Positions 1-21,453 of a stretch of 64,000 bases of DNA are shown one piece after another. The notes under the pieces are model-generated. The model was given only the letters and a program-made list of their open reading frames with translations, was not told the DNA's origin and did no database searches. Position 1 is the stretch's first letter; every line of letters begins with the position of its first letter. The position numbers were made by a program, and so were the translations under genes. Source of the stretch: Pomacea canaliculata (lineage: Eukaryota > Mollusca > Gastropoda > Architaenioglossa > Ampullariidae); NCBI RefSeq assembly GCF_003073045.1, contig NC_037593.1, forward strand, positions 21,636,720-21,700,719, in the 5' to 3' direction.

Positions 1-2283
1 GCACGCGCGACGCAGTCTCTCCTTGGAAAACTCTCCTCGCTTCAGTTCCAGTGCGATTGTGCTTCGGAATTCTTTCATGTCAAATATCTGCAACAAGAAG
101 GACAACAAGTTCGCTGAGCAAAACCAAATTGCAGATGGTCAGATGGCAACTGTTCGAGAGGTCACCTGTCCGGCTGTTTGCCCTTTGTTTCTGTGATCGA
201 GATCGTTGACCGTCTTGCAGCAGATGTTTCCAGTTGTGTCCTCTCATTTTAAAGCGGATGTTCTCTGTGTTTCTGTTTCTTCAATCTCCATTTTTCGAAT
301 ACTGACCGACCTCCGTTTGGATATTCAGACTGCGACTTGTTTCTGATTGGTGGTCAATCATCGATGTTCTAGATACTTCGGGTGTTTCCCTGCTTCTAGT
401 GACGGTGTTACTTCGTGAAGTTTCCTCGATAATTTTGATCTTCAATTACAGTGGTTGCTATGGTGACTGGTGTGCGTTGATCTATTGACATCAAAGTAAA
501 CATCAAGTCAGCTTGCCTTTGCAACTTCTCACAGTCATCTTGCACACGCACGCGCGTGTTGGAGGGTTAGGGAGAATGTGTGTGTGTGTGCATGTGACGT
601 GTGACCGTGCTCACGTGCCTTTATGTGACGTTCCTCTGTTTCCAACATTGTGTATGTGTGTACATCTCTTTAAGCCTGACAGGTGCAGTGTGATGACGCT
701 TTATAAGTATGAATTATTGTTGTTATTTTTATTTACAGACCTTGATTGTCTCATCAAAGGGGAGATTGCCCTTTTGCAGGAGGACGTCAGCAGAGAGACA
801 GAAGGAATGCGGCTGTTGCAGACCTTTGACCGTGACAGTCAGCTCCGTCAGACGACACGCTAGAATGTTGCCGTCAGAGTCACCCGTTAAACGCACGCCC
901 TGCCAACAACACAAATATTGGTCAGTGCAGGTAGGAGATGGTAAAGCAGCTCCTAGTATATTTATAGATATATACTTATTATCTTTGAGGAGCGGTGGGG
1001 TAGAGGCTTAGATTGGCGGGTAAGTGACGTTTTGATGAAAGTCTGCCCTCAGTGGTTAGAGAGAGGTTAAAAGAGTTGAATCGTCCGGAATCAGATATTA
1101 CTCATTTGCACGGAAGATAAACATAATATTCTAATTTCTATTTCATCTGATAGACTGATTGTAATACAATTTGATGTTCTTATAGTTTTTAGCGGTTGGA
1201 GGTGATGTCATGCATTGGAGGGAGAGCTGTGGAGGCTAAAAGCAGCTGGACACTTACCTCGCGAATCTGGTCGCGGAAATATGCAGTGTCTCTGTCTCTC
1301 AGGCGATTCTGGAACTGTCTTAAGCCAAACTTGGCAACCGTGGCTCGTTCAGCACTGATCAAAGTGAAATGTACTGACCGATAATTTAGGGGAGGGATCA
1401 GAAATCAGCTAATAGTCATCCTTTCAACAACAATTCAACAGAAACACAAACACACACACACACAAACACGAAGAAGGGAAGAGATCAGGAGCGTTGATCA
1501 ACAAATTGTCTTGACGGATGGTGACTGAAGAAGTGGAAGCACAGCACAGTGTATAAAATGTTCTCTCAGAACAAGTACAGAGGTGACGTCATCATTAAAC
1601 CCACCTGTCTTCGTCCACTGAGGTAAAGGAACCGTCGATCACGACCGAGCGTGAACTCAGGTAGGTGCTGGTGACTTGTCTCCCCCTCTCCATGTAAATC
1701 ACCTTACCCCAGGTTTTTGACTCGAGCTTGTTCAGGGACACGAGTACTCCGTAAATAAGTTCCTGAAAAAAGAAGTGCTGAATTTTAATAAATAAATATT
1801 TAAGAGAGGAAGAGCATGAGAGGCGACTAGAGAAAGATGGAGGAGCCTGTAGAGAGAAGTATTGGGAGGGGGGTGTGTGTGGTGTGTGTGAGAGCTATGG
1901 CCTTCTGACCAGTTTGAATATTTCATGCATACTAATTAGGTCTAAGTTCGTATGCACTTCAAGTCTTTCGTAATGTCCATGATCACTCTTTTGTTTAACA
2001 TCCTTAAAAACAAAGCCAATCGCAACGAGCTGAAAAATTTTGTGCTGATACTTTCCTCAACTACTTCAACTGCAGGTACTAAAAACAAATAAAAGCCAAT
2101 TAGAAACAATTACAAACTTCTTAACAGAATAATGTATAACAAAACTAGTTTAAAGTCTATCGACAGAGTGTAAAGGTTAATAACCTCTCGGAAAGTAGCG
2201 GGATGTTCTGTGGCGATGATGTTTGATGTGTCAACGACGTCGGCGTGCGGTCTTTGATGGTGATGCCAGCCGCTTGAAGCTCG
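1..2283 (-). CDS. MH2 (SMAD-type) domain exons at the myosin C terminus
   Basis: Exons 2185-2283, 1605-1762, 1258-1354, 741-899 and 1-87 encode about 200 residues. Landmarks compared with SMAD MH2 domains: TWGKVIYMERGRQV (SMAD: HWCSIAYYELNNRV), SSRSVVIDGSFTS (SSRSVLIDGFTD), FGLRQFQNR (LGLLSNVNR), QIREGVRL (HIGKGVHL), GNILACRLTELTVTV (GEVYAECVSDSSIFV), and IKIFDMKEFRSTIALEL (LKIFNNQLFAQLLAQS), ending ...RLRRAC against ...LTRMC. All phases are 0 or matched, including the junction with the IQ exon (phase 0). The C-terminal strand and any SSxS phosphorylation tail would lie left of the window. MH2 domains bind phosphoproteins and trimerise. A separate SMAD-like gene is the alternative, but no promoter, start codon or polyA signal is seen between the IQ and MH2 exons. 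Confidence 0.8.
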
Positions 2284-5214
2284 CTACCAGGAGAAAGAAG
2301 AGAGACAAAAATGTCAAAGTTAGACATTCGATAAATTTGATTTTGACAAAGTCACTTCACGGACAAACATTAATTGTTGTAAACATAAGTAAACAGGCTG
2401 TAACATTGGGTAGACAAGCACCAGTCACAGTAGATAGTTTATAGATAGCCCTATTCAGCGCAGACAGATTAGTGTCAACATCACTGCTTGGAGTTCTTCA
2501 AATAAATTTTCATCTGTAGATTCTGGTACATTGTTGACCAGCAACAAAGCACAGGTCACCAAGTTTGAACCTCGAGAAGAATAGAGAAGCTTTGGAAGAA
2601 AAGCTCGAGAAGTTAATTAAAGACGATTTTGTCCGTTCGACTGGACGCTTCCTCAAAACGTCCTTTGAGCTTCGAGGCGACTTTGTGTTGAGAAGTCGTG
2701 ATCGAATGACTGTTTGGCAATGTAAGAACACATATAGGGACGACTCCATGATATTTTAAAATCAAGGTTGTTTGATTAAGTGTTTCTTTTTTAACATCAA
2801 TTTATGTGCACCTCCTTTTTTATGGTTTTAAAGAACGTTTACAAAATTCTGTTATTTGCAAACAGGGAACGCTTGCTACAATGGATTGCAAAAGAGAAAG
2901 CACAATTTAGTTCCGAATAATGTTTAACTTAATTGTTATAGCCCATGACATCTCTCTCTCTCTCTCACACACACACACATCAGCATCCACTATTTATCCA
3001 CGGTGTAAAGTTTTGTAATGGTAACACAAGCAAACTCTTACATTTAATTCCGCCATGGCCCCATCAATGTCCGCTTGATCTCTTGTGGTTCTCCAGGCCT
3101 CGCCTCCCAGTAGAGCCACGTGATCGCAGAACTGCTGAATCCTGCTTGTTTGTTCTTCCGGTGTCAGGGAGCCACCCAGACGTTTGCGCACGTGATAGCC
3201 GCGCACCACACTCTGACACACAACCACCTTGTGCAGGTACTCCGCCATCAGAGCGTGGAGTCGCTGCACGTGCCAGTACCGGAGAAATACCTGAAGCAGA
3301 CCAGCACACCTTGTCGACATCTGACCAACATCTTGCCAGTATATCTCACAAACAGTTAGTGCTTGTGTTTGATTATGCATGGAGATAAAGTTTGTGTTTT
3401 CAATATCAAACTTGTCACACAGAGCGACATGAGAAAAAATAACTCCATTCGGGGCGTTAAATGTTAGGGACAAGGTGTGCAAAAAAATATATATGTATAG
3501 GGTGCATGGTAGCTGTGTGATGAGAATTGCATCAAAGAGCAGCAGTTCAACAAACTCACTGATTCTTTGGTCAAGACAGGTCCGCGGCCCAAAAGTTCTG
3601 CAGCTGTTAAAATTAGCCGGCATGCTTCCAGAAGTTTCTCGATTCTGACTGATGAATGAAATCTCAGAGCACGGAAGCTGTTGATTCATATTAAAGACAA
3701 GTTAGCCACATGTACATCCCCAACTCTACCTACACAGATAGAGCACATGTCTACACACTACACATCCCTCGACATTCTCATTTCTTCTCTCCCTCTAACA
3801 CACACACTTGATTTATACTCACACTGGTTATTGTGATAAGAATATACTCGCTTGCTAGCATAGTACTGCCACATTACAAAAAAAGAGAGAAATATACCTC
3901 CTGACGAAGTCCGCGTGAGTCATGCATGCAGAGTATCCCAGCTTCCTCTGACGAATAACCTCCACTATGTTGGCTTCCTTCATCTGAGACGTCACTTCCG
4001 CCGTGTCAAACTGACCTGGCACCGCACCCGGGTTAGGACGCATGCACCTACGAGAGGATAGATACTGTTTAATAATAATGACACTCGTTCAAGAGGTTTC
4101 CAGGATGAGAAAAGTCTGTGAAAGTTCTGTCAGTAAGCAACACACCACAACACCATCCACAGCAGTTCTCTAAATAATCCAGGTTTTTCAATTTGTCTCC
4201 TTTCAGATATAAATAAGTGAGATTTTGACACGAACAATAAAACAATGCGTTCAAAATCGTTCACATAAAATGGTTTACACACTGCTTTATCGCCATAATC
4301 AATTAATTTCAGACACTGTAATTACGAACATAAATATTCGACAAGTTTGTTTAAAAAAATGGCAGGTGATGATTAGTGTTCTGTTTATATGTTCTCCTCA
4401 AGATCAATCCTTCTTTTACGAATGAAACATTTGTGATGTCAATGGAAATAAAAGAATCTCAGAGTGTGGTCATATTCTTGTCTTCTTGGCTGTGATAAAG
4501 ATTCGCACGACACGTGACAACAAAGAGGGTTGATCCTCTTGGTGACAGGGTCAGGGGCTGACCTGATGTAATGAAGACTGCTGTTGTCAAGGCGATGACG
4601 GAGAAAACTTATTTCGTCCTGAAAAATGAAGCACGAGGGATGAGACAGTCTCCACATCAAAACATACTACAAGACGACTTCCTCAGTTATCATCTATTAT
4701 CACCTGCGTGTTTCGCAAGGAGAGGAACTAGCAAACTTACCTTCAGTCATTATGTTTAGGATATAAAGGTAAATTAACATTATGGTGTCAAGTTGAAATT
4801 AATGATGTTGAGAAAAAAAACTCTCAGTAACACAGGGTGTAGGTTTCTCTATGAGGAAGACTCAGATCGTCGTCATCGTCAATCTTTAAACGAGAACATG
4901 AATCTTCACAAGAGATTTCAATTCAAAAATAGGAACAGCAACTCTGGTCATCTTTTAAGCTAGGTGACTTATTCAGAAACTGCTCAGAAACTTGCGGCAT
5001 CTCGACAGAAATGAATAACTAAAAGTCAGTTGTTTATGAGTGGCATTTCTGTGCTACACATGACACTGTGCTGGCTGACTACTAACAATGGCGGTCAAAC
5101 CAAAAAATACCTTGAAATTTCTGTGCGATGTGAATGTCTGTGACTCCTCAGGCACATACCTGTAAAAATAATCCGAGTCTGCTTGATTGTGCATTCGTCT
5201 ATTATTCAATAAAA

Positions 5215-5251
<37 letters not shown>

Positions 5252-6532
5252 ACACACCACACACACCACACACACCACACACACCACACACACACACACA
5301 CACACACCACACACACCACACACACCACACACACCACACACACCACACACACACAAAAGCATGTTTCTCTAGCCAATCATAGGCGTGTAGCACCATCCTA
5401 ACCATATGACTTACGCATCTCCATTTTAGAGACGGATTTCTGAGCACCTGCCACCGCCTGTCACTTTTATTTTATGCTTCCTTGACCTTATTATTTCCCG
5501 GTATTTCCCGTTCAACATTTAACCATGTACACCGGTGCTTTCGTCCATCCTTCAGTTTTTCGTTTTGTCTTTATAGTCCAGTCAAGGCACCTCCTCTGTT
5601 TTGCTGTTTATCTCATTTTTAATACATCTTCGGCTCCTCCTCTCTCAACCACCTCAATCAGCCTCATTGTTACATCCCTCAAACCAATGCCCAACTCCTC
5701 TGGTGCCAAACATACCCTAGCTGCTGCTGACACCCCATCCTATCCTTGCTCACCCATCCACCCGTCATCAGGTGCAGGACGTACCCGCGTTGTTGCTGAG
5801 TGACGTCATAGGCTATCTCCTTGGCCAACGGATTGGCGCCGTAGATCAGCAGCTGGGCAATGGAGTCTGGAAAGGAGGCTCTGGACCTTGCCAACAAGTC
5901 ACTGGCATCATAGGTCATCTGCATACAAACACCTTGTACACATACATGGCTACAAACATGCTACACATAGTGTCACTAGAAATACAAAGCACCTGTAATA
6001 TCACTTAGTAGCATATAGCATCTGTAATGTCACTTAGTAGCATGTAGCATCTGTAATGTCACTTATAGCACAAACACAACACTTTAATGTTAAATCATGG
6101 CTAGAAATACATAGTACTTATATTTTAATATCACACATACCGACATGAGCAACTTTCACCAGTCGCAAAATATTTTCAGTAAAAGTTCACATTGTTAAAA
6201 TTAACGAGGCGAACTCCTAGGTGTCGGGACTAAATAAATATTTGTACTGCGAATCTGAATGATCAAAATGTTGTACATGTCAACCATTATCAGAAGCAGA
6301 TAAATGCTTACCTGGCTCAAGAAGTGTTTAACAGTAAACAAATGTTTTTCTTTGCATTTCAAGAAGATCTTATTCTTCTTATAAGCCTTGTTCTTGCACA
6401 GACTACGCACGAGCTCTCTGGCGGCTTCCGTCTGGGGTCCAGACTGGTGCAGGAGGAGGTCGAGCAGGCCGGTCTGTGGCTGGTGGTAAGACAGGACCGT
6501 GAGAGGGGACGTCTGTCTGTCTTTCTTTCTTG

Positions 6533-6604
<72 letters not shown>

Positions 6605-9600
6605 GCCTGTCTTTGCGAACGCTGTTACATTACTTATAGTGTCTGTTAATAATTATAAAGACTAAATTCATTCAAAAAAACAATGGAGAACAATGCAAAG
6701 AGGGACGACAAAGAAACGTGTCTGTCAAGCAAAAGGACAAAGAAAAAAAGAAAAGAAATCTTACTGTAAACACGGCCTGCACGAGCAGTGTGTTGTCCAT
6801 GTACTTCACTCTGTAGGCCGCGATGTCCTCGCGCTCACAGCAGTCCACGTCCCTCTGCAAGATGGCGGCGTTGAGGTAGTTCTCCATCGCCTCGGCAGCC
6901 ATGTTGCGCTGGAAACTGTCCAGACCCTGCAGTCCAGTTGTGTCGACACCCACAGAGTCCACGACACACACTGCTGTCAGTCGTGTGTTACACCTGTGAT
7001 AGTGAGTTTTGTGTCGCAATGGGCCTTTCGTTATACATTCTGTTATGCAAGTATTAATAGATATTAACTTTTCATGAAGATCTCTTTCCTTTTGGAAGAA
7101 AATGCTTTAACAAGACCTTGCATGCCTATGAAATAGCAGGACATGGATCCTAGCAGTCACCTAGCAGTCACCTAGCAGTCACCTAGCAGTCACCTAGCCA
7201 AGCACGCATAAGCCCGCTGCGCCCTCCCTCCAACTGTTAGGTAGACATGCGCAAAGCCTTCTCAAGGCCCGTAGCTATGGCTTCAGACGGTTATTCGGAG
7301 AAGAACTGTTGTTATTCTGAAGAGGAATTCCGTGTTCATCTTATGAAATGCAATAAAACAAAGCTTGAAATAAACGCATGTAGTCAGTAGCAATATATAC
7401 AGCCCTATCACTGATAGTACAATAGAGAATACTACACACTACAGCAGTACAATAGAGGACATCAAACACTACTTTGAGACTTACAACTCCTCTGGTGACA
7501 GAGACAGCGCCATTTTGATCTTCTTAGAGACGATGGCACACAGACGATGGTACAACTCCACGACGGCCATGTCGATAATGTACGGCAGTTGTTGTAAAGT
7601 ATATGGAGCCTGGACCACCTCTCCTGCACCAAGCATCTCAAAGTAATTATGTACATACAAGATTATATCTTTATGTAGATATATAATATATGTACATACT
7701 AGATTTTATATATATAGCTATAAAAAAGATGTCTTTACAGTACAAATGCCAAAATAGAAACATAATGTATAACATGTTACGCCGATTACCACTCTGCAAG
7801 GTGTACTTGATGCGAGAGATTAACAAAGCTGTTAAATTTATTGCTTTCTCATATGAATTGTGTTTGAAGAATGCGTCTCAATGTCTGACAGCCATTCCGA
7901 AACAAAAGCAAGAAAGCCTCGCTGCAAGTTCTACCTGCGACTTGAGTTGTGTTGTTGAGTAAAGCTCCTTCCAGGTAGTCTGACCTGACCCCCAGCAAAT
8001 CTGCAGCTGTGAACACAAATGTCGACAATGCACTGTTTGAACAGATTATGTATGTATGACAAGTACAGTCAGTTACCTATGCTGACAAACACATTGACAT
8101 AAGTACTCGTCACAACACAACAGTTAATGTCACAGCACACCTGGCTGAACTCGTCATTTACGCCCAAGAAAATCCACAAGGCAGCCACACATAACCTGCA
8201 TCACGTGATCAGTTGATGAAGACTGGGACCGTCAGCAAGAACAGCCGATAGTTGGAAAACTTGAGAAAGTAAAACTAAGTATATAGAACTCGGAAATATA
8301 GAACTAAGCTTAAAGCTTCTGACAGTTAATGTCAGGTGTGCCGGGCAGTCTGTTGTCGAGGTTTGGGTAGTAAGTACCTGCTCTCAGCTCCTCTGGGTTC
8401 GAGAACGCTGGCCGGCCGGTGTGCGGGTGCACCATCACGGTTAAGTTCCCCAGATGCAAGATGGTGGCCAGCAAAGCCAGGAGAGCAGATAACTCGTGAC
8501 CAGCATAGTTCTGAAACTGGAGAAGGGAGCAAAGTAGGAGACAAATATTTAGTGATTCTAACAGACTTTGTCCTCTGTGTCTGGCTCAAAGGTCTGGCGG
8601 AGGGAGTATTTTCTGAGTGCGATGAGTAGTGTGCTCGCTCTCCACTCTACAGATGGCGAGTTCTAGGTGTAGGTACATTTGCAAAATCTTTAACACCTCT
8701 GAACTATCTTCTAGTCTTGTCGTTGGAACCACAGGAAAGGTGTATGGGTATGTTTGTAAGAGGTAAAGTGAGTTCAACGAGAAATTCTCGTCTTCTGGGG
8801 ATATTAAAGAAAAGCGTTCCTACCGTGTGGTCGAGTCCCAGCTGCGCCATGGCGCTGACAAAGAAGCCAAAGGCGCCGCCGCTGCGTGCGTAGTCCTGAC
8901 GATCCAGGAAAAGGTTCGATCCGTCACCTGCATCCAGCAGCCTGCAGCACAGACTCACATTTCAAACCCTTTCACCCACGATTGTTTTCATTTAACAAAT
9001 TGAGGAAGGGAGAGTCATAGGAAGCTGACTGTCAGTACAGACTGAAATGCGAGTCATACGGGGCTGTCCCTACAAACTGATATGCGAGTCATAGAGAGCT
9101 ACAGACACTGACCTGTAGGTGGATAGAAGGTAGTACATCTCCTGCTCTCTCTTGCTCATACCAGCCAACATGGAGTAGAAGACACTGAAGGTACCCCAGC
9201 CTTTTGGCCTATAGACCAGCAGCCATTTCTCAAGGCACAGAATCCCCATCTCCGCTAGTGAAGACAGGAACAAGAAGCAGAAATGTCAATGGATGTGTTG
9301 TGCAAGAAGACTTGCCTGCTAGCTCTAGTCACATCATGCACAGAAGCTGAACACAAGAAAGGTCTTGGTTTAGAAAACTGCATGCACACACACTCTGACT
9401 CAACCTGGTCTACCTAGAGTATAATGGTGGCCATTGCTCAATGGCATGGCCTGGAGAATGAGACAGAAACAATACCACTTACCCATTACCATCTGCCTGT
9501 CTTCTGGATGAAAGAACAGCGTGGTCGTCCTGATTGCACGGGTGGAAGCGGCGTTTACGGGTGTTCGGACACGCGCCATGGCCTCCAGCATGTGCAGCGC

Positions 9601-12600
9601 CTTAAACAGACACCTCCAAGTCATGTGACAAGAAGACTGATCTGCTCTTTATGGTTTATTATTTGACAAGAATTCAAGGCTGATGTGTTCTTCGTTATGT
9701 GACAACGAGATGACTGTTGCGTTCTTTATTCTTGTGACAAGGATTATTTTTTCTGTATTCTTTGTTATGCTTTGTTATTTCTGGTGCGGACGACAACTAC
9801 AGAGAATAGTGTCGACGCAGTAAATAGACGAACTGGATTCTCTCTAGCATTCACGGATAGGTCACGAAAAAAAACCCAAACAATTTCGAGAAAGACAGAG
9901 CGCATTCAAAACGAGTAGTGTTTGATAAAAAGTCATAGGGAATAGTGTTTAATGGGAAGTCAGAGTGAGTTTACTATATTTCACAGAGATGAAGAAAGAA
10001 ATTCGCACAGAGGGACAAACGGATGGACAGACAGCAGGCGGACAAACGTATGGGCAAACGTATACAAAGACTAGCATAATTCTCCATTAGGTTTGAAGAT
10101 ACCTTACCACCAAAAAGAAAAGCATAAAGCAGCTTACCAAAGTAACACGGGAACCCAGGCCAGAGAGAGGAGATAGCCGGGACTCTCTCATCAACTGCGT
10201 GATGACCAGCTTTGAGGCTCGAGTTTTGCCTGAAATGACAAATTGTCTTCCTTGAACATAGGCATGCTGGCACCATTCACCAATTAAAAGACATGGTATA
10301 ACCCTAAAGGCATGATCTCATCATCCGCCCGAGCTTGGCGAGGACTTACCGGATCCTGGTCTGCCAGTGATGAGGACACAGTGGGCGGGGGCGCCGGCCA
10401 GGAGGGCCTGGTGCACGCGGTGGGCCAGGCCCAGGACGTGGAGAGGTTGCTGCTGCAGCGGCTTGAGGTCTCGTATCTCACGACCGAGCTGCAAAGACAC
10501 GGGTAGGTAGCTATCATCGATTATCGTTTTGTCATCAAGCTGAGAATATTTGGCTCTTCTAGATATATCGGATGGTAGTCTTCGTGGGGCAGAGAAAACC
10601 GAGCTGTCATTGTAGCTTTACTCTGTCTCTATAATGTTAACCTGTCTTCTTCCTGTTCTAAAGTCAGAACAATCGTGTCTCTGCAACCTTGGTCAACGAA
10701 CTTCTGTATCACTCTATAGCCTTGACCTATCATCGCAGTCATTTATTTTTCTCTGCACTGTCGGTTTCTCTTCAGAAAGACTTAAAGCCTTATTAAATTA
10801 TAATTATTATTGCTTCATGAATGTGTAATTGTCTGTCTTCAATTAAACAGTATTTTCGCTGTATGATTTTTTCATTTTTCTTCAAATTTATAAAGCCTAA
10901 AACAAAACTAAAAAGAAGAAACAAACAAACAAACAAACAAGCAAACAAACAAATAAAAATAAACAAAAATAAACACAAAACTTGTTGTCATGGATCTAGT
11001 CAGAGTGCTAGGACTGGGCGCGTGTGTAGATGAAAGCGTGCGAATGATGGACGTTCTCTAAATGGAACGTGAAAAATGACGTATAGTGACGTCAAAAGAA
11101 AGAGTGAGGTAAGCGGGAGAGACGTTGAGAAGGGATATGGAAGCAGAAGGACGTGAGAGGACATTTTTAGAAGAAGAAGAAAGTAGAGAGTAGATAGAAG
11201 AGGTAGAACGATAGCGAGTGGAAGAAGAAGAAAGTAGAGAGCGGAAAGGGAGACGTGAACGTATGTGTCAAGACAGTGAGTTTATAGCGTGTGAGGTGTT
11301 CGATGTACTTTGTAGAAGTGGAGATTGAAGGATAAACTGTGGTGTTAGAGACCGTTTTGCTTTTACAGTTAGGATCTATTTTTTTTTTTTTTTTTTTTTT
11401 GGTTGGTAATTTTGATCATTAAACAGACAGACTCGTACAGGCGAGTCATTCTTCAATTGGAACGAAAGAACGCGCAATTGTCCGACCCGCTGGTGAGTTT
11501 GAGAGAGCGAGAAACGATAGGCACCGGCGGCGTCGTGACAATTTGGTGACCCCGACGTGATTCGCCTGTTGCGGGTCTGTCTGCGTCGTGAAGAAGTCGT
11601 CAGATTTGTTTTATAGAGATTTGCAGAATAGAAGGAAAATGGCTGCTCAAGAAGAAATTGTGATAGATGTTGCAACCTATAAGGAGGAAGGAAAAACAAT
11701 AGGACTAGAAGGTGAGGCTTTGACAAAATATATATTACAGTGCATAGAGAGACATGAGCGACGCTTAGCACGAGCAGCAGAGAAAGAGAAAGCAGAGAGA
11801 GAAGAGAGACTAGAGAAAGAGAAAGCAGAGAGAGAAGAGAGACTAGAGAAAGAGAAAGCAGAGAGAGAAGAGAAACTAGAGAAAGAGAAAGCAGAGAGAG
11901 AAGAGAGACTAGAGAAAGAGAAAGCAGAGAGAGAAGAGAGACTACAGAAAGCAGAGAGAGAAGAGAGACTACAGAAAGCAGAGAGAGAAGAGAGAACCGA
12001 AAGAGAGAGAAGAGAATTTGAATTAGAAAAGCTACGGTTGGAAAACAGCGAAAGGATAATTCACAACGACAGTGAACCCGGCCGTGGAGGTCGAAATTTC
12101 CAAGGACTAACCCCAAAACTTCCACTTTTTAAGGAAGAACTCGACGACATAGACTCATTTTTATATCGATTTGAATCACATGCTAACGCCCTTCGATGGC
12201 CAAAGGATCTATGGCCTCTCCACCTTTCAGCCATTCTTCAGGGAGAATCTCTTAAACTCTACCATGCTCTTTGTATTCAGGGATCTGTTGAATACGAAAA
12301 ACTAAAAAGAGAACTACTGACTAAATTCCAGTGCACAGAGGAAGGTTATCGTGAACCACTAAGAAGCATTCGACCCCAAATGGGAGAGTCAATGATATCC
12401 TTCTCGACAAGATTAATAAGTATAGCTGACCGATGGGTGGAACTTTCTAATGTCGAAAAGTCATACAACGGAATACGAGATCTTCTTTTACGTGAGCAGT
12501 TAATTCAAAGCGTTTCAAGAGACCTGGCGGTTTTTCTGAGAGAAAGAGCTCCTAGCTCCGTTGAAGAAATGATAGACTGTGCTGAAAAGTATAGACAAGC

Positions 12601-15600
12601 CCACCCAAACAAGATCTTGGCTCGACGACCTGAAAACGCCGTAGCTGCTAACGCTACGTATCATCAGCCAGGCAAACCCAACCTTCCTCAATCATACCCT
12701 CCTAGAATGCCTAACACCCAAACCATATCTCGCCCTACACTAAGTCGTCCTACTGCCCCGATACCTCCCTCACACCCTTCCGTATACCAACGAAACAATC
12801 AACCTAGACAATTCCAACCCCGTTCCCCTCCTACGTCTGAAAGCATCCAGTGTTATGCTTGTCGTGGGTATGGCCATCTAGCCCGCGAGTGTGCTAATAC
12901 ACTGCGTCGCGAACACAATACCGCCGCAGCAGTGGACACGGAGGAGGCAACCGCCAACATTGCCGTCTTATGTTCCTCCTCGATCCCTAACGAATTGGGA
13001 CAGCTACATCTTTTCCAAGGAGAAGTGAAAGGGAAGTCCGTCCAAGTTTTGCGAGATACAGGAGCAACAATCTCAGGCATTCGGGCAAGTTTGGTGGCCC
13101 CACGTGAGTATTTAAATAAACGCCAGACATGTGTAACATTTGGCGGACGGCGAGAGTTCTTCCCGTTGGCAAGAGTCCAAGTTAGAACTCCATTCTATAC
13201 TGGGCCCCTCACGTGTTGCGTGATCAAAAGCCCCATTGTTGACCTAATCATTGGAAATGTTAGAAGAGAAACTACTCGTTGTGATGTAGAATCTGAGAGG
13301 ACCAAGGCTCAAAATGTGTCACAAACACAACAGCCGACAATACAGAGAGAATCGACTCCTCAAGAGGTTCATGAAGCACTGAACCGTAAAATCAACGACA
13401 TGAGTGATGAAATCAGAGAGTTGCGACAATGTTTACAGAACTTTAAAGGAAATACTGAACGTGATGAATGCAGACTGCAGAGAGAACTCAGAGACCGGGA
13501 CAAAGAAATTATTGGGCTTAAAGATGAGACAGAGGTTTGGCGAAAAGAAAGAGATGAATTGTGTAGACAACAGTGGGTAACAGTTGGTGACTTTGCAGAA
13601 AAGGTTCGTGAACTTGAATTAGGTCATAAGAAACAGTCTAATGACCTACAGAAAGCCTTGGAAGAAATCAAATTCTTCAAGGAGCGTGAAGAAAGCATGA
13701 AGAAAGAACTTGAGAACACTGTAACAAAAGAGAAATATCTGGACAAGGAGATATCGGCCAATGGTGAGACTAACAGGGCGGTGGAACGATTGACAAGACT
13801 AAAAAGAGAACCCGAACAAATCTACGAAGACAAGAGAAAGACTACAAAAGTGTATCTGGACTCGAGACATCAGGTGTCGAGTGAAGTAGAGGAAAAGATG
13901 ACAGACGCTGGCATCGTGACCAAAGAGTTTGAGGTTCATCAGACCTTCAAAGAACCCAAGACAGATCTGGGAAAAGCCAAGAAGAGACGACCATTTTCAG
14001 AGGACTATTATGGGACAACTTTCAAAGAATTAGGATAACTGCTGCTAAGTTTTGATCCGGAGGACAAGGACAAGAAAGAAGAAGAATGTGAGAGTATTCA
14101 AGAACAGAAAAAAAGAACTATCAAACTAATCTTTACATGACTCTATAAGGATAGAATACAAGCCTTCTATGACTGTTGATTTTCAAAAGGGACGTGTCAT
14201 GAGAAAAAGGATATTGTTATTTAATGTAAAATCAGAAAAAAGTGACTACGAACATTAACATTGGGAATAGTATAGTGTTTGTCATGTAACCTAGCTTTAC
14301 GGACAATGAAAAAAAATTTAGGAAAATTTTTTTTCAATGGAAGGGGGGAGAAATGTCATGGATCTAGTCAGAGTGCTAGGACTGGGCGCGTGTGTAGATG
14401 AAAGCGTGCGAATGATGGACGTTCTCTAAATGGAACGTGAAAAATGACGTATAGTGACGTCAAAAGAAAGAGTGAGGTAAGCGGGAGAGACGTTGAGAAG
14501 GGATATGGAAGCAGAAGGACGTGAGAGGACATTTTTAGAAGAAGAGGACGTTAGAGAGTAGATAGAAGAGGAAGAACGATAGCGAGTGGAAGAAGAAGAA
14601 AGTAGAGAGCGGAAAGGGAGACGTGAACGTATGTGTCAAGACAGTGAGTTTATAGCGTGTGAGGTGTTCGATGTACTTTGTAGAAGTGGAGATTGAAGGA
14701 TAAACTGTGGTGTTAGAGACCGTTTTGCTTTTACAGTTAGGATCTATTTTTTTTTTTTTTTGGTTGGTAATTTTGATCATTAAACAGACAGACTCGTACA
14801 GGCGAGTCATTCTTCAATTGGAACGAAAGAACGCGCAATTGTCCGACCCGCTGGTGAGTTGGAGAGAGCGAGAAACGATAGGCACCGGCGGCGTCGTGAC
14901 ACTTGTATTACAGCAAGATTATATTAAAAGTTCCGGATTGTTTTCAAATATTATAGTAATGTCGAGTAATACACAGCAGACTACAAAAATATTTCTGCTG
15001 CTGACGAGGACTTTAGAAAAGTCGACGATTGTGATCTCACCTCTTCTTCATTTTCGCCTGTGTCATGGCAGGGGTTGAAACTCAGGAGAAAGTCACCAAA
15101 ATAAGTCTGTGAAAAAGAAAGTCAGTCACCAAAATAAGTCGGTAAAAAAAGAATTTACCATATATTTACTGAACTTAACTAGCCTAGCATGACGTCACTG
15201 GCTCACGCACTCACTCACTGACTCACTGACTCACAAACTCACACACTGAGTTACCACCTACGCAGTACTGTTGGAGTTTGAATCGCTCCGCTAGCACTCC
15301 GAGCACTTCAGCTCCTTCGATGTCAGCGAGTGCAGCGAGGTCAGTCAGCTTGACCCTGCCATGGAAGAAAAGAGACGTGGATGTCATGGGTACCTGATAC
15401 TCGGCTAGTGAGAGACGTACAGGGACAACATGGGACTGGGTACAAACGTATCAAGAATGCTATTTATTATTTATCCACACCAACGGCACGATACACGACC
15501 TACCGACGAACTCTACATGTGGCACTGAAAGGAAGGCGCCATTATCTTTCAGACTGTAACATTTCACGGCTCAAGTATTTTCAGATTTAAATTATTTGTT

Positions 15601-18660: not shown

Positions 18661-19766
18661 CTGACTAACGAAGTGTAGTTATCATAATACAGGATCTTGC
18701 ACTTAAACAGACAGGTCAGCAACACCTTCTGTGTATCTCTTGCGTGTAACCACACCCTCTGGACGGCAGGTACCCTAGGGTAACTGTTGTGCGACGGCGT
18801 CTCTCTCTCCAACAGACGAGCGCCCACGCACACACGCACGCACAAGCATGTGACATCATGTAATAGCTTACACGCAGAATGAACCTCTTTTGTTTTCTTT
18901 TGTACTCAGTAATTGATTTTCTCGGAAAACGAAATGTCTTTTATAGATAACGAGAATTATTGACTGTACTCTTATGAGAATCAAAGCTGACATTCATGTA
19001 AAAACTTTAAGAGTTAAGAATCAAATAAAAAATACAAAAGTTAAAACTGAAAACGAGAAATGAATCAAAATATAAATTTGTGAAGTTGAAAATAAAATAA
19101 TAAAACAACAAAAATAAAATACACTAGTTAAAATAAAATTAAATAGTTCAAAAAATAAAATAGTTGAAAATAAAATAAGTTAATTATAGAATATATTTGA
19201 AAGCTGACTGTAACGAGAGCCTGCTGTTGAGGAATAATGATCTTGATTATGGATCAGTGTTCACTGCCCTCGTCGTCTACTGAGATAAAGTTTCGCTCCT
19301 TGATTTACCCCTATCCTCATTAGGATGTACAAAAAATGGCACAATATTTTTAAGAATACCTACACACGAACAGTAATAATTAGGAAAGGATATATTCCAA
19401 GCGCCAGTCACTGTGTATGTGAGGAAAAGGCTCTGTCCCAGTGTGTCACAGACTACACGTGACATGTCATGTAGCAAACTGTGTGCCAGCTGTGGCAACA
19501 AGTCACAAACTTTGACAGCAACTCCACAGTCAAGATATTTAGAACATTTTGATTATAAACCCACGTATGGTATGACTAATACTATTATGAGGTAGTCATT
19601 GTCCGTTTATAAAGACATACACAGTCGAAGTACTCCTATTACAGACCAGTACTGATCATCACCGCCGCTGCAATCACGATGGTATACAAATACTATACTG
19701 CTCTCCAGATAATAAGTCCACTTTGTCAAGCCGTTTGAGGCAAAGGACATACTACAGCACGTTAGA
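18661..19766. other. AT-rich intergenic region
   Basis: It holds an AAAATAAAAT-rich stretch (19020-19200) and no supported gene. A potential GPCR promoter should lie near 19.6-19.75 kb, but no clear core element is visible. Confidence 0.5.
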
Positions 19767-21453
19767 ATGATTCAAATAATGCCCTGGTATGTTATGTCAT
19801 TGTTCTTTGCTTTGATCCTGACCCGCATGACCCCGACATTCCAAACAGCGACGACTTGGACAGGACTGCCATTCCCAAGTGCAGGTAACATCAGAACCTT
19901 GTCTGGGCAGACGACAGCAAGTATTTCCATTACACAACACACGAGCGACGACGACAACTTCGAGAACGTCGCCACGTGGAAGCAGGAGTCAAAGCTCGTG
20001 ATGAGTAACGATGAAGGAGAGCTGCGAGCGGAAACACAGAATGGCGGGTTGCTCAACATCACAGTCTCTCCTCCTGCGCAATATGACAGGGCGCTGATCA
20101 TCACCAACGTCGTCAAGACGGTCGTCAGCGCCGTCTGCCTTGCTCTGTGCACTCTCAGTGTCGTCGTCTTCTGGCTTCTGAGGGCAGAGAACGCCGCCAA
20201 CCACTTCCTCCTGGCCATCAATGCTGCAGAGGCTGTCACCGCTGGCCTGGCGGTGATGGTGGAAGTCACGAGTCTCGCCGACAGCCGCCATCAGGACACG
20301 CTGGCCTTCCAGTGGTTCACAGTCGCCTCTCTCTTCGTCAGCGTGTCTCTCAAGAGATGCGTGTATGTCACCTACCTGTTTACCTGTGTGCTCTGCACCC
20401 TGGCTGTCATCTTCCCCATGAAGCCATTTCACCGCGACTTGAGGAAATCTCCGAAAATAGTTATCGCTGTTCTCTTTTTAATAATCTTTTCTTTTCATCT
20501 TTATCTCATAGTGGAACACAAGGTTGAGTTTGAAGATGGTAAATACGTGCTTAAAAAGTCCAATGTCTACATTGAGGAGAAAGAAAAATTTTTACTTTGG
20601 GGAAATTTTGGTAAATCACTTTTTTCTTACTTTCCTCTGACTGCGAGCCTGATACTTAACGGACTGCTGCTGGGCGTCCTGACGACATGGCGGAGAGCGT
20701 CCAAGGTCTTGCACGAGGGCCAACGCCGCCAAGAAGAGCATCTTAAGGTCATCAAGAACGTCACTATTTTCCTGGTAATGCTTCTAGCTAGATGATGATT
20801 ATTAATAACGAAAGTAATTTTGTTATTCTGTCTCTACTGCCGACTGTTATTACCGTCATCTCTTCCTCCACTGCCAGCTGTTATGACATCATCTTCTCTA
20901 CATCCGATTGTTGTTACCCCATCTCCTCCCTTTATTCCAACTGTTATATCATCATCTCCTTTACCTCCGACTGTTATTCTATTATACCTTCGTCCCCTCC
21001 TCTTCTTCCTGATGTTATGAAATCTCAACTTTTATGACCAACAAGTAATCAGGTTATTTCATTGGTGTAAACTGAGTTTCACCTGATGTTAGTTTAGGGA
21101 TACCGTTTGATGTTATTACGATGTAGGTATAAGGTCTGTAGCTGTCGCTGCAACATCGTCTCCACGTTCTGTGAGCACAGATTTCCTGTCTGCTCTACCT
21201 GCTGCTGTCGCTGCCGTCCAACACCCTGCAAGTTGTCGCCACCTACCACCCGACCCTGGGCTTCTACAAGGCCGACCACTCTCTCTACGTTCTGCTGGGT
21301 GAGATGTTCATCGTCTGCCAGGATCTGGGCAGCGCACTCACCTTCCTCACCTACTTCACCCGCAGCACGCGCTTCCGCAAGACATGCAGGCCGCTGCTCC
21401 GCTTGATCTTCGCTTGTAATCAGTCGGTAATTATCCCGCTCACTCGCAAGTAA
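19767..21453 (+). CDS. Class A-like G-protein-coupled receptor (two exons)
   Basis: Exon 1 is 19767-20774 (donor CCTG/GTAATG) and exon 2 is 21181-21453 (acceptor GAGCACAG), phase 0, giving 426 residues. A hydrophobic leader (MIQIMPWYVMSLFF) is followed by an extracellular region with an N-glycosylation site (NIT). Seven hydrophobic segments follow: IITNVVKTVVSAVCLALC (TM1), FLLAINAAEAVTAGLAVM (TM2), FQWFTVASLFVSVSL (TM3), KIVIAVLFLIIFSFHLYL (TM4), SYFPLTASLILNGLLLGV (TM5), TIFLISCLLYLLLSL (TM6) and VCQDLGSALTFLTYF (TM7). The intracellular tail begins TRSTRFRKTCRPLL, typical of invertebrate peptide- or chemosensory-type receptors. LKRC stands where (E/D)R(Y/C) is expected, and the NPxxY tyrosine motif is altered. 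Ligand unknown. Confidence 0.82.

What the first reader, a model, noticed from the sequence alone, without database searches (positions are those of the whole stretch)
1..3290. Myosin motor fused to a SMAD-type MH2 domain
The exon carrying the IQ motif (3042-3290, ending phase 0) is followed on the same strand by five in-phase exons whose translation tracks the SMAD MH2 fold through at least six landmarks (WGKVIYMERG, SRSVVIDG, FGLRQFQNR, IREGVRL, GNILACRLTELTVTV, IKIFDMKEF). No start codon, promoter or polyA signal separates them. MH2 domains are known from SMADs as phospho-dependent oligomerisation modules. I know of no named myosin class carrying one. If real, this is an actin motor or anchor with a signalling-type tail.
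Basis: partly seen in the sequence, partly recalled or inferred. Interest (0 to 1): 0.9.

Follow-up and report, generated by a model that had tools for sequence, protein, structure and literature searches.

The report
Snail myosin with Expansion-type MH2 tail
A snail gene really does fuse a (probably weakened) myosin motor to an MH2 domain; such fusions were already reported, but this MH2 is closer to the insect protein Expansion, which is tied to chitin secretion, than to SMAD signalling proteins, which suggests a new, testable role.

Summary
The fusion is real. The window lies in the apple snail Pomacea canaliculata. A 27-exon minus-strand model (26 of 26 introns GT-AG, in phase) gives 1135 aa: myosin head, weak IQ, MH2, C-terminal tail; it runs past window base 1. 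Key support: a processed retrocopy on another contig (poly(A), target-site duplication) carries the exact 3042/2283 junction and all tail exons spliced; a 3802-nt contig elsewhere holds a whole 1139-aa motor-plus-MH2 frame; six proteins (five named caenogastropods, one unnamed) have both Pfam domains. The architecture is not new: MH2 myosins were reported in 2014 and 2017. The phospho-oligomerisation reading is not supported: the tail matches Drosophila Expansion's N-alpha-MH2 (130.7 bits) far better than any SMAD (best 49.2), aligns over its extra N-terminal helix and has its short L3 loop. The motor is divergent, with altered nucleotide-binding motifs in 5 of 5 sequences compared, so it may be slow or non-cycling. 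It groups with two Pomacea heads found upstream of chitin-synthase exons (98% ultrafast bootstrap; long branch, ten taxa). Best reading: an actin-bound scaffold; bold reading: a partner of chitin synthase, as Expansion is in flies. Interest 0.5.

The parts
15262..15387 (-). E1, motor N-terminus (...VKLTDLAALADIEG...); start codon uncertain
   Evidence: absent from the NCBI model P0001, matched by P0003 and P0004
15041..15106 (-). E2, motor (TYFGDFLLSFNP)
10350..10488 (-). E3, motor, first part of P-loop (GRPGS)
10138..10229 (-). E4, motor, rest of P-loop (KT)
9483..9600 (-). E5, motor, switch I (NAASTRAI)
9113..9254 (-). E6, motor
8824..8941 (-). E7, motor
8378..8516 (-). E8, motor (ILHLGN)
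7935..8006 (-). E9, motor
7485..7623 (-). E10, motor
6765..6993 (-). E11, motor, switch II (DSVGVD) and following region
6312..6479 (-). E12, motor
5785..5918 (-). E13, motor
5111..5159 (-). E14, motor
4563..4618 (-). E15, motor
3898..4047 (-). E16, motor, SH-helix region
3560..3677 (-). E17, motor end (converter region by alignment)
3042..3290 (-). E18, end of head, weak IQ motif, linker
   Evidence: its last 26 nt are in the retrocopy
2185..2283 (-). E19, linker before the MH2; omitted by the NCBI model
   Evidence: present in the retrocopy L005
1605..1762 (-). E20, region aligned with Expansion's N-alpha helix and start of MH2
1258..1354 (-). E21, MH2
741..899 (-). E22, MH2
1..87 (-). E23 (part), MH2 (IFDMKEF...); exon continues to -105 outside the window, followed by E24-E27 and a 3'UTR with AATAAA at -2695

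Best explanation
A single gene encodes an MH2-myosin of the class-80-like / lophotrochozoan orphan kind. Shown: spliced head-to-tail fusion with relatives in other caenogastropods; an MH2 closer to Expansion's N-alpha-MH2 than to SMADs; non-canonical nucleotide-binding motifs in the motor. Inferred: the head holds the protein on cortical actin with slow or abolished cycling, and the tail is a monomeric protein-binding module that recruits a membrane-associated partner. It would act as an actin-bound scaffold or anchor, not as a phospho-dependent SMAD-like oligomer.
For: Gene model with 26 of 26 introns GT-AG and in phase. Processed retrocopy carrying the last 26 nt of E18, E19 to E27 and the 3'UTR without introns, with a run of A and the 14-bp ATTAAAAAATTCTT on both sides. 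Six proteins with PF00063 plus PF03166 over three searches, one of them whole on a 3802-nt contig, so without introns like those here. Profile of five MH2 tails against the PDB: Expansion 4r9p 130.7 bits, best of 24 SMAD sequences 49.2 bits; no gap against Expansion in L3, 6-residue gap against SMAD1. Reverse search in the Pomacea genome: Expansion finds the retrocopy at E 3.3e-14, the only other match being an MH2 exon on C2 (presumably a SMAD, not confirmed) at 0.79. In 5 of 5 motors compared the P-loop GESGAGKT is GR[PA][GA]SGK[TS], NxNSSRFGK is [NS]xxSTR[AG]I, and DIxGFE is absent; two Pomacea heads near chitin-synthase exons keep GESGAGKT, NxNSSRF and DIxGFE.
Against: P-loop lysine, switch I arginine and an acidic switch II residue remain in 5 of 5, so ATPase activity is not excluded. 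Actin binding, partner and localisation were not testable. Both structure models were poor (mean pLDDT 35.3 and 45.2), so the helix rests on sequence alignment. The evidence against SMAD-like trimers comes from Expansion, not from this protein. P0003 has serine-rich SSVSSLSS near its C-terminus, a faint echo of the SMAD SSxS end, absent at the end of the Pomacea protein.
Confidence: 0.65

Rival explanations
1. Two neighbouring genes (a myosin and an MH2 protein) misread as one.
For: The retrocopy is 5'-truncated and by itself shows only the last 26 nt of the myosin exon; an in-frame ATG lies in those 26 nt.
Against: Six proteins carry both domains, one on a 3802-nt contig; no polyadenylation signal in the intron between; junction precisely spliced in the retrocopy.
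Confidence: 0.02
2. A SMAD-like tail that oligomerises on phosphorylation, linking the motor to TGF-beta signalling.
For: Pfam calls it MH2; P0003 has SSVSSLSS near its end.
Against: Far closer to Expansion than to any SMAD found; L3 short and acidic (DDADD) in place of the SMAD loop; about 140 residues follow the MH2; Expansion itself takes no part in TGF-beta signalling and its N-alpha helix clashes with the trimer (PMC4388265, passages and section 21).
Confidence: 0.06
3. A fully active transport motor with MH2 as cargo adaptor.
For: P-loop lysine and switch I arginine kept; Pfam head match spans nearly the whole model.
Against: Altered P-loop, switch I and switch II in 5 of 5 sequences, while two Pomacea heads near chitin-synthase exons are close to canonical; long branch (1.38 substitutions per site).
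Confidence: 0.22
4. Partner of chitin synthase in apical chitin secretion, as Expansion/Rebuf are for Kkv (see novel case).
For: Expansion-type MH2; motor grouping with heads near chitin-synthase exons and, in print, with class-36 (PMC5583752, passages); N-alpha-MH2 required for chitin translocation in flies (PMC9894549, passages).
Against: Kinship is not function. Class-80 myosins occur in echinoderms and hemichordates, where chitin is scarce (recalled). In the same paper the mollusc and annelid orphans are polyphyletic in the motor trees. PMC4388265 states that Expansion's functions are conserved in Mollusca too, so molluscs may have a separate Expansion; my genome search would miss one split into small exons. 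No expression data.
Confidence: 0.25

Closest known systems
Class-80 myosins and lophotrochozoan orphan MH2-myosins (PMC5583752; passages seen)
   Same: Motor plus C-terminal MH2; reported in molluscs and annelids; orphan motors sister to or grouping with class-36
   Different: The passages seen do not relate the MH2 to Expansion ('Smad' and 'FHA' do not occur in the text) or remark on the nucleotide site; this gene adds a conserved C-terminal tail and a retrocopy
Myosin III-like proteins with MH2 in Salpingoeca rosetta and Oscarella carmela (PMC3942036; passages seen)
   Same: Same architecture
   Different: Sequences not compared here
Drosophila Expansion/Rebuf N-alpha-MH2 (4r9p; PMC4388265 passages and sections 16, 21; PMC9894549 passages)
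   Same: MH2 subtype by sequence, aligned helix region, L3 length
   Different: No motor in Expansion; its MH2 is N-terminal
Class-36 chitin-synthase myosins (PMC5583752; animal chitin synthases PMC3942024, passages)
   Same: Motor relatives; two candidate heads found upstream of chitin-synthase exons in this genome
   Different: Chitin synthase tail; near-canonical nucleotide site
SMAD MH2
   Same: Pfam family PF03166
   Different: Much lower score, longer L3, MH2 at the C-terminus (recalled)

Membership tests
MH2-myosin (class-80-like / lophotrochozoan orphan) | Myosin head and C-terminal MH2 in one protein | tested here: met
MH2-myosin (class-80-like / lophotrochozoan orphan) | Motor sister to or grouping with class-36 | tested here: inconclusive
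   Grouped with 2 Pomacea heads near chitin-synthase exons, UFBoot 98; ten taxa, composite sequences, no class-80 sequences, long branch
Class-80 proper | Monophyly with ambulacrarian class-80 | not tested
   No class-80 sequence obtained
Expansion-type N-alpha-MH2 | Sequence closer to Expansion than to SMAD | tested here: met
   130.7 against 49.2 bits; reverse search
Expansion-type N-alpha-MH2 | N-alpha helix before the MH2 | tested here: inconclusive
   Aligned without gap from profile position 7; helix 9-19 in a low-confidence model
Expansion-type N-alpha-MH2 | Short L3 loop | tested here: met
   No gap against Expansion, 6 residues shorter than SMAD1
SMAD | MH1 domain | tested here: not met
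   None in Pfam scan at E 1
SMAD | MH2 at the very C-terminus with SSxS (recalled) | tested here: not met
   About 140 residues follow; Pomacea ends ...TSGQD; P0003 has SSVSSLSS a few residues from its end
Active myosin motor | Canonical P-loop, switch I, switch II | tested here: not met
   0 of 5 sequences compared
Active myosin motor | Actin-activated ATPase | not testable with these tools
   needs biochemistry

The most novel reading that the evidence does not exclude
The insect chitin-export factor Expansion/Rebuf and this myosin tail are one protein module. In snails it rides on an actin-bound myosin head related to chitin-synthase myosins and serves chitin synthase at the apical membrane; insects use a motorless version. 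Pomacea shows how a motorless version can arise: a retrocopy has released the tail as an intact 372-codon frame with fewer replacement changes than expected for a dead copy.
Probability: 0.22. Interest if true: 0.82.

Novelty: new member of a known kind. Interest (0 to 1): 0.5.

Why it matters
MH2-myosins have been listed since 2014; in the passages I saw, only a general protein-binding role was offered for the MH2 (PMC3942036). Placing the tail with Expansion links them to a module with a known genetic function in flies (chitin translocation) and the motor to the family fused to mollusc chitin synthase, so a role becomes directly testable in snails. It also bears on the published idea that MH2 arose on myosins before SMADs (PMC3942036): if the myosin MH2 is Expansion-type, Expansion may be a motorless descendant of it.

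Tried and rejected
Two-gene artefact: rejected (retrocopy, homologues). SMAD-type oligomer: not supported by sequence. Structure: full-length P0003 (mean pLDDT 35.3) and the MH2 piece (45.2) were too poor, so no fold search was run. Homologue searches gave six proteins in all: five from named species, which are Caenogastropoda by lineage, and P0003, unnamed. The searches need shared 5-residue words, and only the 7991 candidates sharing most words were scored, so absence from bivalves or annelids means nothing. No class-80 sequence was obtained, and further gene copies in the genome were not counted (tail query did not complete).

Literature: the two papers in the held library that contain 'MH2', 'myosin' and 'rebuf' are by title and abstract unrelated (listing only); 'myosin', 'MH2 domain', 'mollus' gives the two myosin surveys alone. 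That covers open-licence PMC papers only.

In the motor tree one overlapping weak fragment (C13_0_25156, 5.2 bits) was dropped, hits of 5 bits or less were ignored, and columns with more than 20% gaps were removed, leaving 623. P0006 (566 aa, partial) was left out of motor comparisons. Flanks of 40 kb upstream were fetched for five of the chitin-synthase places (17 matches listed there); two of the five had head matches. The family control also rang in 4 of 14 control genomes, all bacteria, so PF03142 alone does not prove chitin synthase.
Full report
What the window is. The window is part of a 440,159,624-base genome, contig C4, which is 34,737,321 bases long. The closest protein hit, C0Q70_07899 of Pomacea canaliculata, lies on a contig of exactly that length, so the organism is the apple snail P. 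canaliculata.

The gene. Reading the minus strand from about 15.4 kb down through base 1 and on into the neighbouring sequence L009 gave a 27-exon model in which 26 of 26 introns are GT-AG and every junction keeps the frame. Two acceptor choices were then moved to agree with P0001, giving 1135 aa. The window's edge cuts exon 23, and the last four exons lie outside it. The joined protein (1122-aa version) scores Myosin_head at residues 16-671 (216.4 bits, E 8.7e-64), MH2 at 816-989 (74.1 bits, E 2.1e-20) and an IQ motif below cut-off (14.8 of 20.3 bits). The NCBI model P0001 lacks exons E1, E2 and E19 and begins with a different exon. P0003 and P0004 support E1 and E2, and the retrocopy supports E19. 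An element flanked by long direct repeats (two matching blocks within 10986-11543 and 14354-14904) sits in the E2-E3 intron, a possible reason for the missed exons. The start codon remains uncertain.

The junction is real. The genome holds a fossil of one. Locus L005 on contig C9 contains a continuous stretch matching the last 26 nt of E18, then E19 to E27, then the 3'UTR to about 20 nt past the AATAAA at -2695, with all introns removed (1691 of 1788 aligned positions identical; 21 differences in 1130 coding bases). It ends in a run of A and is flanked on both sides by ATTAAAAAATTCTT, the marks of a processed retrocopy. It is 5'-truncated, so it does not show the head. The head is covered by homologues: P0003 is a 1139-aa motor-plus-MH2 frame on a contig of only 3802 nt, which leaves no room for introns, so it is a transcript or a full-length retrocopy (inference). 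Across three searches six proteins carry PF00063 and PF03166 together: Pomacea, Batillaria, Nucella, Babylonia, Littorina (a 566-aa partial) and the unnamed P0003; the five named species are Caenogastropoda. No polyadenylation signal lies in the 758-base intron between head and tail.

What kind of MH2. A single-sequence search of solved structures gives Drosophila Expansion (4r9p) at E 2.4e-15 and SMADs only from 0.31. A profile of five tails gives Expansion 130.7 bits (E 5.6e-37) and, among the 24 other sequences listed, all SMADs, at best 49.2 bits (E 4.9e-12). The alignment to Expansion begins before the MH2 core (LYKEHIQEVLDKW against LYEEIVEKVLSSL) and has no gap at loop L3, where SMAD1 has six more residues. 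In reverse, the Expansion domain searched against the whole Pomacea genome finds the retrocopy at E 3.3e-14 and otherwise only an MH2 exon on C2, presumably of a SMAD, at 0.79; genes split into small exons, like the parent itself, are missed by that search. According to PMC4388265 (passages and sections 16 and 21 seen) the helix clashes with SMAD-like trimers, the short L3 would not support them, and Expansion does not act in TGF-beta signalling. Against this: P0003 has SSVSSLSS near its C-terminus, and nothing was measured on this protein.

What kind of motor. In the five motors compared, the P-loop GESGAGKT is GR[PA][GA]SGK[TS] in 5 of 5, the switch I core NxNSSRFGK has become [NS]xxSTR[AG]I in 5 of 5, and switch II DIxGFE is present in 0 of 5 (its glycine is kept in 2 of 5). 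The lysine of the P-loop, the arginine of switch I and an acidic residue in switch II are kept in 5 of 5. Of five chitin-synthase places whose 40-kb upstream flanks were fetched, two (C13 and C2) have myosin-head exons about 10 kb upstream on the same strand; that head and synthase are one gene there is inferred from published mollusc proteins. These heads keep GESGAGKT, NxNSSRF and DIxGFE, with one change in switch I (FAK for FGK) in the C2 copy. A maximum-likelihood tree of ten motors put the five MH2-myosins with these two heads, apart from myosins X, Ic and XV, with 98% ultrafast bootstrap. The branch to the MH2-myosins is long (1.38), sampling is small, the two heads are composites of exon pieces (495 and 500 residues), and by plain identity they are nearer to myosin X (39-43%) than to the MH2-myosins (24-28%). 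The result agrees with the published statement that the lophotrochozoan MH2 orphans, though polyphyletic, are sister to or group with class-36 (PMC5583752, passages). I infer a slow or non-cycling, actin-tethering head.

What is already known. PMC3942036 reports MH2-bearing myosin III-like proteins in Salpingoeca rosetta and Oscarella carmela (passages). PMC5583752 describes class-80 (echinoderms and hemichordates) as containing most prominently a C-terminal MH2, and mentions mollusc and annelid orphans of the same architecture (passages). So the architecture is known, and this is a new, documented member. What I did not find in print (open-licence library only) is the link between this myosin tail and Expansion; the word myosin does not occur in the Expansion structure paper or the fly chitin paper.

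How it may work. In flies the N-alpha-MH2 of Expansion/Rebuf is needed to move chitin made by the synthase Kkv out of the cell; it is not needed for apical localisation, and alone it neither localises nor works (PMC9894549, passages). In the snail protein the head could supply localisation and the tail the interaction. With the motor's kinship to chitin-synthase myosins, this makes a chitin-secretion role the most pointed hypothesis, though it rests on kinship alone. Against it: class-80 occurs in echinoderms and hemichordates, where chitin is scarce (recalled); PMC4388265 names Mollusca and Annelida among the phyla in which Expansion's functions appear conserved, so a separate mollusc Expansion may exist; and no expression data were available.

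The retrocopy. Its frame is open for 372 codons from an in-frame ATG, with 12 silent and 9 replacement changes against the parent (NG86 dN 0.011, dS 0.048). If it were dead while the parent is constrained (assumed omega 0.05 to 0.3), so few replacements would be expected with probability 0.045 to 0.015. This is suggestive, not proof, that a motorless tail protein is in use; transcription was not tested.

Noticed in passing
L005:1328-3110 (G000 C9, about 13.48 Mb): Processed retrocopy of the myosin tail with a run of A, target-site duplication and intact 372-codon frame; replacement changes fewer than expected for a dead copy (P 0.015-0.045 under stated assumptions).
   Followed up: partly
window 10986-14904: Element flanked by direct repeats (98-99% alike in two blocks) with an 825-aa open frame holding a weak CCHC zinc knuckle (20.5 bits, cut-off 20.8), inserted in the E2-E3 intron of the myosin gene.
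   Followed up: partly
P0001 (C0Q70_07899): The NCBI model omits E1, E2 and E19 and starts with a different exon.
   Followed up: yes
window 19716-20795 +: 359-aa open frame with several hydrophobic stretches by eye; no Pfam match at E 0.01.
   Followed up: no
G000 C13 about 17.996-18.007 Mb and C2 about 41.665-41.671 Mb: Myosin-head exons about 10 kb upstream of chitin-synthase-family exons, keeping the P-loop and switch II motifs; one switch I change (FAK) in the C2 copy.
   Followed up: partly
P0002: Batillaria model carries an unusual repeated insertion near the end of the head (VLMKAASGGA...), perhaps a model error.
   Followed up: no
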